A stretch of DNA of 64,000 bases from Kiloniella spongiae (GTDB lineage Bacteria > Pseudomonadota > Alphaproteobacteria > Kiloniellales > Kiloniellaceae): the NCBI RefSeq assembly GCF_001026905.1, contig NZ_LAQL01000002.1, positions 1 to 64,000 on the forward strand, in the 5' to 3' direction. The position numbers were made by a program, and so were the translations under genes. Positions 27,749-33,978 of the stretch are shown in pieces; within the stretch, counting starts at the first letter, position 1; every line of letters begins with the position of its first letter. The notes below the pieces were generated by a model. It saw nothing but the letters and a program-made list of their open reading frames with translations. It had not been told where the DNA came from and did not search any database.

Positions 27749-29505
<1,757 letters not shown>

Positions 29506-29534
29506 TGACGAGATATCAAACAGGTTAAAACGAT

Positions 29535-30368
29535 ATGTCCAATAAAGTAATTCTCGTCATCATGGACGGTGTTGGTTATGACACCGCCCTCTCTCAATGT
29601 GGTTATCTGGAAGGAATGGTTGAGCTGGGTCGAGCCCGCCGCTGGAAAATGCGCACAGCTTTACCAACTATTTCGGCGGCAATGTATGAAACCATCCACA
29701 CCGGTCTATCGCCCCTTGATCATGGTGTCAGCGGCAACGAAGCTCTGCGACGCTCAAACGTTCCAAATGTCTTTGACCAACTACATCAGGCGGGGCATAG
29801 CACAGCAGCTGTCGCCCATTCCTACTTCCACACACTCTATAACGGACCTTATGATCCTGTTGAGCATGTCGAAGTAGAAGATGAAACAAAGGCAATCCAG
29901 TACGGGCGCTTCTATTCTATGGAAGGTTATTCTGCGGCAAACATTTGTGCCCCGGCAGAAATTGATCTCTGCGCACAGGCAACACGTCTCATTCGCCGTC
30001 ATACACCGGATTACGTTCTCTTACACAGCTCATCCGTTGACAGTCTTGGTCATAAATATACTGCGGACTCTGCACAATATCGTATTCAGACATGGCATAT
30101 AGACAACGCACTGGCCCGAACGATACCAATCTGGTTAGAGTCAGGGTATGAGGTTTTGGTTACAGCCGACCATGGTATGAATGCTGATGGTCATCACGGT
30201 GGTAACGAGGAAATCATGCGCCATGTTCCCTTTTACTATTTTGGCGCAGACGAAGTTCCGACAAAGGATCAGGTGCTTGATCAACTGGCGATAGCGCCAA
30301 CAGTACTCTCTCGAATTGGTGTTGGTATTCCGGAAAGTATGAAACAGAGACCTCTACTTAAGGGGTAA
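29535..30368 (+). CDS. Alkaline phosphatase superfamily hydrolase, third gene of tmp operon
   Basis: 277-aa alkaline-phosphatase-superfamily protein. Visible are a metal Asp in VIMDGVGYD, a Thr nucleophile in ALPTISAAMYE, Asp/His in SVDSLGHKY, and ADHGMNADGHHGG with two further metal ligands. It resembles nucleotide pyrophosphatase/phosphodiesterase and phosphonoacetate hydrolase types. There is no signal peptide, so it is cytoplasmic. It follows tmpB by 29 bp. It could remove an ester group from a phosphonate or hydrolyse a related C-P or P-O bond before TmpA; its exact substrate is not deducible. Confidence 0.75.
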   Translation: MSNKVILVIMDGVGYDTALSQCGYLEGMVELGRARRWKMRTALPTISAAMYETIHTGLSPLDHGVSGNEALRRSNVPNVFDQLHQAGHSTAAVAHSYFHTLYNGPYDPVEHVEVEDETKAIQYGRFYSMEGYSAANICAPAEIDLCAQATRLIRRHTPDYVLLHSSSVDSLGHKYTADSAQYRIQTWHIDNALARTIPIWLESGYEVLVTADHGMNADGHHGGNEEIMRHVPFYYFGADEVPTKDQVLDQLAIAPTVLSRIGVGIPESMKQRPLLKG

Positions 30369-30399: not shown

Positions 30400-32712
30400 T
30401 TACTGGACGGTCAGACCATAGGGTCCACCATCCAGATATCCAAGATAGGCATCTTCTTCGTACCAGTATTCCTGATCCAATTCCTGCCCTGCCCTGTTGA
30501 TATAAACACCTGTATAGAACGGTAAATCATAATACCAGTACTTGACCCGTTCTGACTTTGGATACTTCAAAGTCAGCGTTTCAAACCAGCTCTGAAATTG
30601 CTTCTTGGGGATATCTTTCCAACGCAGACAATAACTGACGTTATTTGCGCCTTTAGCACAAAATATCATAATCCGAAGCAATCTGGCTTGCTCAGCAGTC
30701 GTCCCTTTTTCTTGGCGATAAAGATCCAATGCTTCTGCAAACATCTCGATCGGTGCCCTTGGCTGATCAACCGTTTTATTTTCCGCCCAAACGCCTTCGG
30801 CAGCTAAGTGGACATAAACAGGTTGGCAATCTTCAAGGTAGCGATTGATCAATTTGGTACGTGCGTAACTACAGCGCGGTGCAATATGATTTTCATAGAG
30901 AAAATAGGCAATATTTGACAACGCTCTGGCCCGACCTCGACTTTTCGCCTGCATTAAAGCGAGTGTTTCCATGTCTTGTTCGAGATCGGCATAGAGCTTT
31001 ATTTCTTCCCGCAGTTTATTAGATTTTTCCAACGCACTGGCTTGAAGAGCAGCTTCCCAGTCCAGTTTTTTCGAGAGCATTATTGCGCCTTGCCAATCTT
31101 CCTGAACCAATGCTTCATCCAGATGTGGGCGGATCAACGCAAATTGCAACAGGGGATCCGCTGTACCAGACAAGGCCGAGATAAAGTCATTAGCGCTCAA
31201 AAAATAACGAGACACCTGCTCGTAAAGAACCACGTCCAATATCGCAAGTTTAGAAAGTTGTTCATTTTTATCAGCGCCATTAATCAGAATTTTATCGTTC
31301 AAAATGAAATCCAGTGGCGTTTTGTTTTTTAACCGGACTTCAAGCTGTTTGCTTCGCAAGGCAAAAAGATCTTCAAGCGAGGTTTCTTTTCCGGCTGCGA
31401 TATCACTAATTTGCATTTGTGCTTTATCAAACTCACCATGTTCCAGGTTAACCATCGCCTCAAAAGCGAGAGCATGGCTATAGAGAGGCGTGTCTTTATA
31501 TCCGTCACTAGAAGGTCTCTTCTCCTTAAGTAAATAATCACAGACCATCGCGCTATAAGCTTGAATTTCTTGATGTTGGCCAGAGACAACATTTTTTCTC
31601 TGTGCACAAAGCCCTACGACATTATCAGGCTTGGAAAGAATGGCCGCTAAAAGCGTGATCCCATTACGATGTGTCAGCCGGCGGTTTGCGATTTCATCAA
31701 TGTTAGCCCGCAAGGCATTTATCGCCAGATGGTCCAGTTGATCTAATGAATTCTTACCATTCGTGAGTAACTCGCCTACTGCAATTTCATCCAAAAGCTC
31801 AGTGTAATAACGATCACGATCTCCGTAATGTAACCAAATGCCAATTTCCATATCTTCAACATGGCGCCGGTATTCTGATTGGGGAAAATCTGTCAGAAAA
31901 GCTTCGGTAAAGCTATTGAAGATAGCTGGAAGGAAGACACTTTCTTGCCCTTCCCTACCATTGTGGAACAGGGCCAGAACTTCCATATATCGCGCAGTTT
32001 CGATTAACCAACCCGTCTTGCGCCCCGCATTCTTTTCTTCCAATGCAATCATGGCAAAAAGTTCTGCAGCCTCGGGGAAAAAACCATCATGATAAAAGGC
32101 TGCCGCTTCGATATATTGAGACCAGTTTTTATATAAGCCCTGTTCCTTACCGACATGCCCTTGGAATGTCTGAGAACTTTTTAAATAGTCATCGAGATTG
32201 AAAAGACAGTCTTGAACAAGAGCAAGACGCATCATGGCCAGATGCCTGATTTCTTCCTGTTCCAAATTGCTATCTTTCAAGCCAGCATAATAACTGTGGA
32301 GGTTTGAGAAATTGCCCCCACTGTAACAATACGCCTGTGTTAGATAGTCCCCATTGGCAAAAATATCTTTGTTCTCTTTACGAACAAAGAGACCTAACTC
32401 TTCCGATGCAAGTTCCTCAATACGATAGGTTCTGTGGAAATTCTGAATATCAGCGAAAATTTTAGAATTTTCATTTGGTCTGTCAGCATACTCGAGTAGT
32501 TCCGGTCGATAGCCACGGATTAGTTGCTCCAGGAATACCTTCGAACGGCCTTCTTGCGGAACAAGCATATCAAGCTGGGTTGACGAACAATAGCGCGATG
32601 CTATGGGTTGCTGGCAAGGGGGACCTCCCCCTGCTGCGAGATCACGAGGGAGCAAGCTCGCGATTAACATGACACTCAGTAGTAATGAATATTGCCATGC
32701 GAAACGTCCCAT
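30400..32712 (-). CDS. Exported all-helical repeat protein, 770 aa, unknown function
   Basis: The start is ATG 32712 (MGRFAWQYS), with AAGGAG 9 nt upstream. A signal peptide (about 1-27, ending DLAAGG) is followed by about 740 residues of predominantly helical sequence with TPR/Sel1-like helix pairs (for example AAAFYHDGFFPEAAELFAMIALEE) and scattered cysteines; the C-terminus is aromatic-rich (YWYYDLPFYTGVY, EQYWYEED-like). I do not recognise a family. Its first 71 bp overlap the end of the upstream DUF3142 gene, so the two are translationally linked. Probably a periplasmic or outer-membrane-associated scaffold. Confidence 0.75.
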   Translation of the reverse strand: MGRFAWQYSLLLSVMLIASLLPRDLAAGGGPPCQQPIASRYCSSTQLDMLVPQEGRSKVFLEQLIRGYRPELLEYADRPNENSKIFADIQNFHRTYRIEELASEELGLFVRKENKDIFANGDYLTQAYCYSGGNFSNLHSYYAGLKDSNLEQEEIRHLAMMRLALVQDCLFNLDDYLKSSQTFQGHVGKEQGLYKNWSQYIEAAAFYHDGFFPEAAELFAMIALEEKNAGRKTGWLIETARYMEVLALFHNGREGQESVFLPAIFNSFTEAFLTDFPQSEYRRHVEDMEIGIWLHYGDRDRYYTELLDEIAVGELLTNGKNSLDQLDHLAINALRANIDEIANRRLTHRNGITLLAAILSKPDNVVGLCAQRKNVVSGQHQEIQAYSAMVCDYLLKEKRPSSDGYKDTPLYSHALAFEAMVNLEHGEFDKAQMQISDIAAGKETSLEDLFALRSKQLEVRLKNKTPLDFILNDKILINGADKNEQLSKLAILDVVLYEQVSRYFLSANDFISALSGTADPLLQFALIRPHLDEALVQEDWQGAIMLSKKLDWEAALQASALEKSNKLREEIKLYADLEQDMETLALMQAKSRGRARALSNIAYFLYENHIAPRCSYARTKLINRYLEDCQPVYVHLAAEGVWAENKTVDQPRAPIEMFAEALDLYRQEKGTTAEQARLLRIMIFCAKGANNVSYCLRWKDIPKKQFQSWFETLTLKYPKSERVKYWYYDLPFYTGVYINRAGQELDQEYWYEEDAYLGYLDGGPYGLTVQ

Positions 32713-33430
32713 ATTTCTTTTTCTCCTTAAAAAGACTATGCCATCTATCATCATTACAGAGAAATCCGTATCTGATGTTATTCACACCCTTTATGGCATC
32801 AAGAAGATGATCTGTTATTGGCGTTTGTTTTTGTCGATAAAACATCAACGAGACCTCTGTAACAGCTGCAGCCAGTTTTTTTGCTGCCTTACGGTTGTCT
32901 TCGTACCAGGTGGGTAAACCTGTTATCCCGATAGAAATATCCTCAGGTATTTGTTTCTGCACGACCTGTAGCCAAACACGATAGTCATCAAGCTTTGAAC
33001 TCGGACTATCATAATCAATTTCAACACCAACAATATCCCGTCCAGCCCGCTTCCAGATATTAATGTCGCGATTAATGAAAGCCGCAACCTCTCTGGCCCC
33101 AACTCGTTTTTCCATACGGTATGTCAGTATAATCTTTTCTGTATCTGGAAAAGATTTCGGACTGTGGTGTGGCGTTGATTTTTGACCTAGTTCATGTCCC
33201 CACGAACGAACGAGAATTCTGGCTTCACCCCTTTGGCAGGATAATTTGAACGTTTCACAATCGTACATAAATTTTTGCTGGTTCTCATCTCTGTCATCCA
33301 GCGATTGTCCCGCCCAGACCCAATGGTCAACAATCAAGTCTTGCGCGCAAACGGGCCAGGCAAACAACAAAACACAAAAGAATATGCCAGACAGTATTTC
33401 CTTTGACGTGCCTGAAACCATCCGCTTCAT
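32642..33430 (-). CDS. DUF3142 family exported protein
   Basis: 262 aa with a signal peptide (hydrophobic GIFFCVLLFAWPVCAQ). It has the DUF3142 signature GVEIDYDSPSSKLDDYRVWL and ISIGITGLPTWY, reminiscent of a TIM-barrel glycosidase-like fold with an acidic cluster. Function is unestablished. It is the first gene of a pair with the helical-repeat protein, overlapping by 71 bp in another frame. Both products are exported, so they probably act together in the envelope. Confidence 0.72.
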   Translation of the reverse strand: MKRMVSGTSKEILSGIFFCVLLFAWPVCAQDLIVDHWVWAGQSLDDRDENQQKFMYDCETFKLSCQRGEARILVRSWGHELGQKSTPHHSPKSFPDTEKIILTYRMEKRVGAREVAAFINRDINIWKRAGRDIVGVEIDYDSPSSKLDDYRVWLQVVQKQIPEDISIGITGLPTWYEDNRKAAKKLAAAVTEVSLMFYRQKQTPITDHLLDAIKGVNNIRYGFLCNDDRWHSLFKEKKKYGTFRMAIFITTECHVNRELAPS

Positions 33431-33612: not shown

Positions 33613-33978
33613 TCAAGGAGCTTTGGGAAGATCCAATTCAAGATCATCCTTATCATTGGTGATTTCAGCATGCATCAAAATTTTGGATGTAAAGGCCATC
33701 GACGTATCAATGACCCATCGTACCTGCTTTTCCCCAGCTTCATTTTGAGCCGCAACAACCTCTGGCAAGATTTGTTTCTGAAGGAATCCGGCAACACCAG
33801 CCAAGGCGCGAGACCCCAAACGTAGATCTTGTGCCTTTAGCTTAAAAGCAGATTTTGTCTCTATTTGGGTAGCGATATCATCCAGAATATCCATCATCCT
33901 GGAAACGTCTTCATTTACCCGCCCGGTCCGATTGGCAATAAAACGTAAATGACCTACATAAAAAGCATAATCAGACAT
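33613..33978 (-). CDS. Hypothetical helical protein, 121 aa
   Basis: No family recognised. The sequence is mainly helical (MMDILDDIATQIETKSAFK, SRALAGVAGFLQKQILPEVV), without signal peptide, membrane segment or cysteines, and ends in an acidic stretch. It lies alone, 182 bp upstream of the DUF3142 gene on the same strand, so co-transcription is possible but not clear. Confidence 0.6.
   Translation of the reverse strand: MSDYAFYVGHLRFIANRTGRVNEDVSRMMDILDDIATQIETKSAFKLKAQDLRLGSRALAGVAGFLQKQILPEVVAAQNEAGEKQVRWVIDTSMAFTSKILMHAEITNDKDDLELDLPKAP

What the first reader, a model, noticed from the sequence alone, without database searches (positions are those of the whole stretch)
30400..33430. DUF3142 protein plus a large exported helical-repeat protein, genes overlapping by 71 bp
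Both products have signal peptides, and the signal peptide of the second is encoded inside the 3' end of the first in a different frame. Neither family has a known function, and the long overlap argues for a constrained, co-produced envelope pair. DUF3142 has glycosidase-like features (acidic GVEIDYDS motif).
Basis: partly seen in the sequence, partly recalled or inferred. Interest (0 to 1): 0.6.

Follow-up and report, generated by a model that had tools for sequence, protein, structure and literature searches.

The report
Conserved chitinase-fold and solenoid envelope pair
Two exported bacterial proteins, one folded like a chitin-cutting enzyme and one a long helical-repeat scaffold, are encoded side by side in almost every genome examined that has this type of enzyme, so they very probably work together on a sugar polymer of the cell envelope.

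Summary
In detail: a 262-aa DUF3142 protein (33430..32642, minus) and a 770-aa exported protein (32712..30400, minus) overlap by 71 nt. The overlap has the same length in 6 of 6 Kiloniella genomes that carry the genes, and synonymous change collapses inside it. The overlap is genus-specific; the pairing is not. Small DUF3142 proteins lay beside a ~700-865-aa exported partner in 21 of 21 loci, 80 of 80 named loci and 6 of 6 more; 71 of 71 partner-bearing loci of another family kept both, two of them with a broken partner. One outlying relative (G229) has no partner. Two Kiloniella species lack exactly these two genes. The DUF3142 model is a GH18-type barrel closest to TfeC, a solved Yersinia chitinase that reviews call an antifungal type VI effector. 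Yet 13 of 21 pair-bearing genomes, all six Kiloniella included, show no T6SS sheath gene. The partner is a TPR-like solenoid. Best reading: Sec-exported glycan hydrolase plus scaffold. Substrate, catalysis and contact are untested.

The parts
32642..33430 (-). DUF3142 gene, 262 aa, GH18-type TIM barrel with export-type N-terminus
   Evidence: Pfam PF11340 50.3 bits against a cut-off of 30, covering profile positions 19-90 of 202; model and PDB matches
30400..32712 (-). gene of the exported TPR-like alpha-solenoid partner, 770 aa
   Evidence: translation; NCBIfam NF053584 (PA5441 family) 29.1 bits, below its cut-off of 300; all-helical model
32642..32712 (-). 71-nt overlap coding in two frames: C-terminal 23 codons of DUF3142 and most of the partner's signal peptide
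   Evidence: same length in 6 of 6 Kiloniella genomes; synonymous differences 18 of 259 inside, 532 of 1224 upstream
32723..32728 (-). AAGGAG, ribosome-binding-site-like, inside the DUF3142 frame and 10 bases before the partner's ATG
   Evidence: sequence; AGGAG or GGGAG at the same place in the 6 genomes
33005..33028 (-). GVEIDYDS motif, residues 135-142, end of strand 4 of the barrel
   Evidence: D139 in 33 of 33 and D141 in 31 of 33 (Glu in 2) aligned sequences; the end of the strand in the model; aligned with the DFE of the GH18 enzyme SleL
33344..33430 (-). probable signal peptide of DUF3142 (residues 1-29, cleavage site judged by eye)
   Evidence: hydropathy 2.86 over 12 residues in the first 45
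32632..32712 (-). probable signal peptide of the partner (residues 1-27, cleavage site judged by eye)
   Evidence: hydropathy 2.80 over 12 residues in the first 45

Best explanation
The two genes are an inherited unit that makes a two-part, Sec-exported glycan-processing device of the cell envelope. DUF3142 is a small GH18-type (chitinase-fold) hydrolase acting on a polymer with beta-1,4-linked N-acetylglucosamine, such as peptidoglycan or chitin-like material. The large protein is a TPR-like solenoid in the same compartment that holds, localises or regulates it. In Kiloniella the second gene starts inside the first, which ties their production together. Shown: the pairing, export-type N-termini, constraint on both frames of the overlap, predicted folds, conserved motif residues. 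Inferred: catalysis, substrate, physical contact, final location.
For: Adjacent on one strand in 21 of 21 small-type loci, 80 of 80 named loci and 6 of 6 more; in an enterobacterial family 69 of 71 partner-bearing loci have both, the other two a DUF3142 gene or remnant with a broken or remnant partner. Present or absent as a unit: the same 6 of 61 genomes of the order, and an empty site with intact flanks in two Kiloniella genomes. Gene order differs between lineages while linkage stays, which argues for linkage of function. Large DUF3142 proteins are followed by a different ~700-aa protein family in 11 of 13 loci. The barrel model is closest to TfeC (Z 18.9) and then to GH18 chitinases (Z 13 to 15.5); D139, E192, Y198, W39, W175 are invariant in 33 of 33. 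Both proteins start with a hydrophobic export-type segment.
Against: No enzyme assay. The residue at the place of the GH18 proton donor is Asp, not Glu, in 31 of 33 sequences. Foldseek ranks unrelated TIM barrels next after TfeC, at E about 3e-4, ahead of the GH18 chitinases. The partner's fold matches are generic for helical repeats and its model is of middling confidence (pTM 0.59). A related 342-aa protein in G229 (below the Pfam cut-off, grouping with G116/G108 in the tree) has no partner nearby, and 2 of 13 large-type loci have none. No contact between the two proteins was tested. Correlated divergence (r = 0.97 over 528 pairs) may reflect shared descent only.
Confidence: 0.5

Rival explanations
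1. The DUF3142 protein is an antifungal effector delivered by a type VI secretion system, as reported for TfeC, and the solenoid is its adaptor, chaperone or immunity protein.
For: TfeC is the nearest solved relative, and two reviews report it as a T6SS4 antifungal chitinase (passages only). 8 of 21 pair-bearing genomes have a T6SS sheath gene.
Against: No sheath gene (PF05943) in 13 of 21 pair-bearing genomes, all six pair-bearing Kiloniella included; export-type N-terminus on the DUF3142 proteins.
Confidence: 0.1
2. The pair trims or exports a secreted polysaccharide, as PgaA/PgaB do for PNAG (analogy recalled): the solenoid guides the chain and the barrel cuts it.
For: PgaB's C-terminal domain is among the structural matches (Z 13.4). 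In four genomes with the pair a PgaC gene lies 14-17 kb from it.
Against: PgaC above cut-off in only 5 of 23 genomes and in none of the 8 Kiloniella; no synthase beside the pair in the loci listed; the partner has no predicted barrel.
Confidence: 0.13
3. DUF3142 here is a glycan-binding protein without catalysis, a lectin-like GH18 relative, and the solenoid is its docking partner.
For: Asp in place of the usual Glu proton donor in 31 of 33 sequences; non-enzymatic GH18-fold proteins such as narbonin and concanavalin B are among the structural matches.
Against: TfeC, with the same IDFD motif, is called a chitinase in its PDB title and in the reviews. The acidic pair is kept across distant branches.
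Confidence: 0.17
4. The large protein is a type IV pilus biogenesis factor, as the NCBIfam label of the PA5441 family suggests.
For: A homology-modelling paper models the C-terminal part of PA5441 on PilW and notes earlier motility and virulence screens (PMC8516228, passages only).
Against: PilW is itself a TPR protein (recalled), so that match may be generic. PilQ is above its cut-off in 10 of 21 pair-bearing genomes and in none of the 8 Kiloniella.
Confidence: 0.05

Closest known systems
TfeC of Yersinia pseudotuberculosis (PDB 8y6t, 9vtv), a DUF3142 chitinase
   Same: Same family: family profile 241 bits, E 1e-70; the window's protein alone 34.6 bits; best fold match, Z 18.9, 198 residues, 2.9 A
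   Different: Only 24-32% identity to the five Kiloniella proteins compared, over 50-142 residues; reported as T6SS cargo, whereas Kiloniella shows no T6SS sheath gene
NCBIfam NF053584, PA5441 family protein (Pseudomonas)
   Same: Large exported partner adjacent to a small DUF3142 gene; the window's partner matches profile positions 150-246
   Different: 29.1 bits against a cut-off of 300; opposite gene order
GH18 chitinases and the spore cortex-lytic enzyme SleL
   Same: TIM barrel (Z up to 15.5 and 15.0); motif aligned with SleL, family profile E 4e-4
   Different: Short barrel with no SxGG-like loop seen and Asp in place of the catalytic Glu (motif names recalled)
PgaA/PgaB and PelB/PelA envelope pairs (recalled)
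   Same: Division of labour between a TPR scaffold and a glycoside-hydrolase-fold protein; PgaB is among the structural matches
   Different: No synthase beside the pair, no outer-membrane barrel, a self-standing two-gene unit

Membership tests
Pfam PF11340 (DUF3142) | match above the curated cut-off of 30 bits | tested here: met
   50.3 bits; covers only profile positions 19-90 of 202, as in the other small-type members
GH18 glycoside hydrolases | TIM barrel with the acidic motif at the end of strand 4 | tested here: met
   model strands, Z 13-15.5 to GH18 entries, D139 and D141 at the end of strand 4
GH18 glycoside hydrolases | DxxDxDxE motif with catalytic Glu (motif recalled) | tested here: not met
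   E137-x-D139-x-D141 in the window; D141 is Asp in 31 of 33 and Glu in 2 of 33. So called GH18-like, not GH18
GH18 glycoside hydrolases | hydrolysis of beta-1,4-GlcNAc polymers | not testable with these tools
   needs an assay; reported for the relative TfeC (PDB title; reviews)
NCBIfam NF053584 (PA5441 family) | score above the curated cut-off of 300 | tested here: not met
   29.1 bits
T6SS antifungal effectors of the TfeC kind | genome encodes a type VI secretion system | tested here: not met
   no PF05943 match in the window's genome or in the 7 other Kiloniella genomes searched
Type IV pilus biogenesis proteins | type IV pilus secretin PilQ in the genome | tested here: not met
   only weaker secretin matches in Kiloniella, none above the PilQ cut-off
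TPR-type alpha-solenoids (partner) | TPR repeats recognised by sequence or fold | tested here: inconclusive
   no TPR model matched the window protein; sub-threshold TPR matches in relatives; fold matches at Z 9-12, a range generic for helical repeats

The most novel reading that the evidence does not exclude
DUF3142 and its solenoid are one widespread, undescribed two-part envelope glycan machine of Pseudomonadota, with several deep branches and both gene orders. The reported type VI effector TfeC would be the hydrolase half of one such machine, so that Sec export with the solenoid is the family's basic mode and type VI delivery, where it occurs, is secondary.
Probability: 0.4. Interest if true: 0.75.

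Novelty: new variant of a known kind. Interest (0 to 1): 0.55.

Why it matters
It gives two poorly understood families one testable joint function, in pseudomonads, enterobacteria, Acinetobacter, Inquilinus, sphingomonads and marine Kiloniella. It also raises a direct question about TfeC: relatives of this reported type VI effector start with an export-type leader, sit beside an exported solenoid gene, and occur in bacteria in which no type VI sheath gene was found. The Kiloniella overlap is a clean case of two exported proteins sharing 71 coding bases under constraint in both frames.

Tried and rejected
T6SS effector as the general role: not supported for Kiloniella. Type IV pilus role: not supported. 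PNAG role: not general. Anti-phage defence: no PADLOC match for the two window proteins or the two Pseudomonas-type relatives scanned. A third gene in the unit: the 121-aa gene at 33613-33978 also occurs in two Kiloniella genomes without the pair, so it is a flank. Conserved neighbours: clustering flanking ORFs of 27 loci gave no family shared across many lineages; the two mixed clusters (5 and 4 loci) have a NUDIX-like and an ABC-ATPase-like representative, named by eye. Cpx-like two-component genes beside the pair in L043 and L046 were found in 5 of 50 other loci, many of them short stretches. Mobile spread: related small DUF3142 genes lie on 12 plasmid-collection records; of the 4 inspected, 3 have an annotated 710-723-aa upstream neighbour and 1 has no annotation there; I did not test those neighbours against the partner profile. 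The Kiloniella solenoid had no match in that collection. Literature: DUF3142 gave 1 paper, listing only; four variant terms gave one irrelevant paper; 8Y6T gave none; PA5441 gave 7 listed papers, of which I saw passages in 4, none mentioning DUF3142; TfeC plus chitinase gave 9 listed, passages seen in 2. The primary TfeC paper is not held. The tree does not resolve how the DUF3142 branches join (root forks 43/5) and the program warns that the Kiloniella and L056-group branches are long. One genome, G362, matched the PA5441 family at 18.6 bits without any DUF3142 match; I took it as a chance match and left it out. Two sub-cut-off DUF3142 matches, G378 and G229, were left out of the small-type count; G378 was not recovered by my own profile and G229 has no partner.

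Full report
What is there. The window carries two genes on the minus strand: a 262-aa DUF3142 protein (33430..32642) and a 770-aa protein (32712..30400) that share 71 nt. The ATG at 32712 follows AAGGAG, and in 4 of 6 relatives it is the first possible start codon of the frame. Named relatives place the window in Kiloniella: four of the five closest named loci are Kiloniella, the fifth is a metagenome bin labelled only Rhodospirillales, which the genome tool puts in the same genus.

Is the overlap more than chance? The same 71-nt overlap is found in 6 of 6 Kiloniella genomes that have the genes. In the DUF3142 frame synonymous differences drop from 532 of 1224 codon comparisons upstream to 18 of 259 in the overlap (without the most distant genome: 328 of 899 to 4 of 208). 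In the partner's frame they are 31 of 247 in the overlap and 285 of 564 in the next 46 codons. The overlap is the lowest of 177 sliding windows, which overlap each other. Both frames are therefore constrained, although the pressure for a ribosome-binding site just upstream could add to it.

Is the pair conserved? In the order, 6 of 61 genomes have DUF3142 and the same 6 of 61 match the PA5441 family, all in one genus. In a phylum sample of 398, 26 have DUF3142: 16 of the small type, 8 of the large type, 2 below the cut-off. Fifteen match the PA5441 family: 13 above its cut-off, the window's genome at 29.8 bits, and G362 at 18.6 bits with no DUF3142. All 13 strong ones have a small DUF3142 gene beside it. 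With iterated profiles, 21 of 21 small-type loci fetched (16 of the phylum sample and 5 further Kiloniella) have a large partner next to the DUF3142 gene on the same strand, G116 and G108 with only about 39 bits. Among named genomes 80 of 80 loci are paired: 5 Kiloniella-type with DUF3142 first and 75 with the partner first; one of the 75, L099, was labelled the other way by the script because its open frame runs far upstream. These are the best 80 of 121 confirmed loci; 41 were not examined. Six of six further small-type genomes of another order sample are paired. Of these 71 loci, 69 have both genes on one strand, and two have a DUF3142 gene or remnant with a broken or remnant partner.

Exceptions. 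G229 holds a 342-aa relative, below the Pfam cut-off but 112 bits with my profile, that groups with G116 and G108 in the tree (100/99) and has no partner in the 13 kb seen. Two of 13 large-type loci (G213, G098) lack the large-type partner.

The pair moves as a unit. In two Kiloniella genomes without it (G042, G043) the genes that flank it elsewhere, a phosphodiesterase gene and a 121-aa gene, lie about 60 nt apart. Gene order is not conserved: DUF3142 comes first in Kiloniella, in G116 and G108 and in the large type; the partner comes first in the PA5441 type. In 17 of 75 named loci no overlap is possible. Divergences of the two proteins correlate at r = 0.97 over 528 pairs, which shared descent alone could give.

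A second branch. Large DUF3142 proteins (about 400-535 aa) have no PA5441-type partner, but in 11 of 13 loci they are followed by another ~700-aa family; 4 of 4 members read in frame start with an export-type segment. It may be a remote relative of the small-type partner (hhalign E 2e-4, probability 45%), though helical repeats can give such scores by chance. In a tree of 32 DUF3142 proteins the Kiloniella, PA5441-type, large-type and G116/G108 groups each lie on one side of a branch, but how they join is unresolved.

What the proteins look like. The DUF3142 model (pLDDT 79.5, pTM 0.77) is a TIM barrel. Its best PDB matches by VIA-align are the two entries of TfeC (Z 18.9 and 18.8), then a GH18 chitinase (15.5), SleL (15.0) and other GH18-fold proteins, PgaB among them (13.4). 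Foldseek also puts TfeC first (E 4e-9), but next ranks unrelated TIM barrels at E about 3e-4. W39, D139, Y150, W175, E192 and Y198 are invariant in 33 of 33 sequences; D141, at the place of the GH18 proton donor, is Asp in 31 and Glu in 2. The partner model is almost all helix (pLDDT 70.5, pTM 0.59), with generic TPR matches by VIA-align (best Z 11.9) and none by Foldseek at E 0.001 or better.

Known relatives. TfeC is described in two reviews, of which I saw passages only, as a Yersinia T6SS4 antifungal chitinase (PMC13162877; PMC13008689); the primary paper is not held. TfeC's nearest relatives here, in the G688 family, are 51-68% identical over 205-217 residues in 70 of 71 loci (the last is a remnant) and are encoded beside the solenoid gene. 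I could not identify or inspect a Yersinia genome. PA5441 itself was modelled on the pilus protein PilW in one paper (PMC8516228, passages), perhaps the source of the 'T4P' label.

Tests of pathway. A T6SS sheath gene is found in 8 of 21 pair-bearing genomes and not in 13, all six pair-bearing Kiloniella among the latter (2 of the 23 genomes searched lack the pair). PilQ above cut-off: 10 of 21, none in Kiloniella. PgaC above cut-off: 5 of 23, none in Kiloniella. None of these is a general companion.

Conclusion. The ordinary core is a GH18-like exported protein. The unusual part is its near-absolute linkage, across lineages and in both gene orders, to an exported helical scaffold, and that a reported type VI effector belongs to this family. 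I favour an envelope glycan hydrolase with its scaffold; activity, substrate and contact remain to be shown.

Noticed in passing
27749-30368: TmpA and TmpB genes (trimethylaminoethylphosphonate dioxygenase and oxygenase, both above NCBIfam cut-offs) followed by a type I phosphodiesterase-like gene, conserved beside the pair in Kiloniella.
   Followed up: partly
33613-33978: A 121-aa gene with no Pfam or NCBIfam match, found in 8 of 59 genomes of the order, all Kiloniella, including two without the pair.
   Followed up: partly
L060, L061, L175-L180, L249-L251: Large-type DUF3142 genes followed by a ~700-aa family without Pfam or NCBIfam match above cut-off in the two members scanned; G688 has both a small-type and a large-type locus.
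   Followed up: partly
L243, L245: Decaying copies: partner broken beside an intact-looking DUF3142 gene (L243), and remnants of both genes side by side (L245).
   Followed up: no
G296:C21, G402:C74, G369:C1, G345:C1: In four Pseudomonas-type genomes a PgaC gene lies 14-17 kb from the pair; probably local synteny.
   Followed up: no
L254 2860-5690: On a Providencia rettgeri plasmid a 714-aa hypothetical protein and a DUF3142 protein are annotated with a 31-nt overlap between iron-export and haem-uptake genes.
   Followed up: no
L052 4582-8869: In a Pseudomonas-type genome the DUF3142 gene lies between a gene that looks like a U32 peptidase (by eye) and the PA5441 homologue; by recalled PAO1 numbering no gene is listed there, so it may be unannotated or absent in PAO1. 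Not tested.
   Followed up: no
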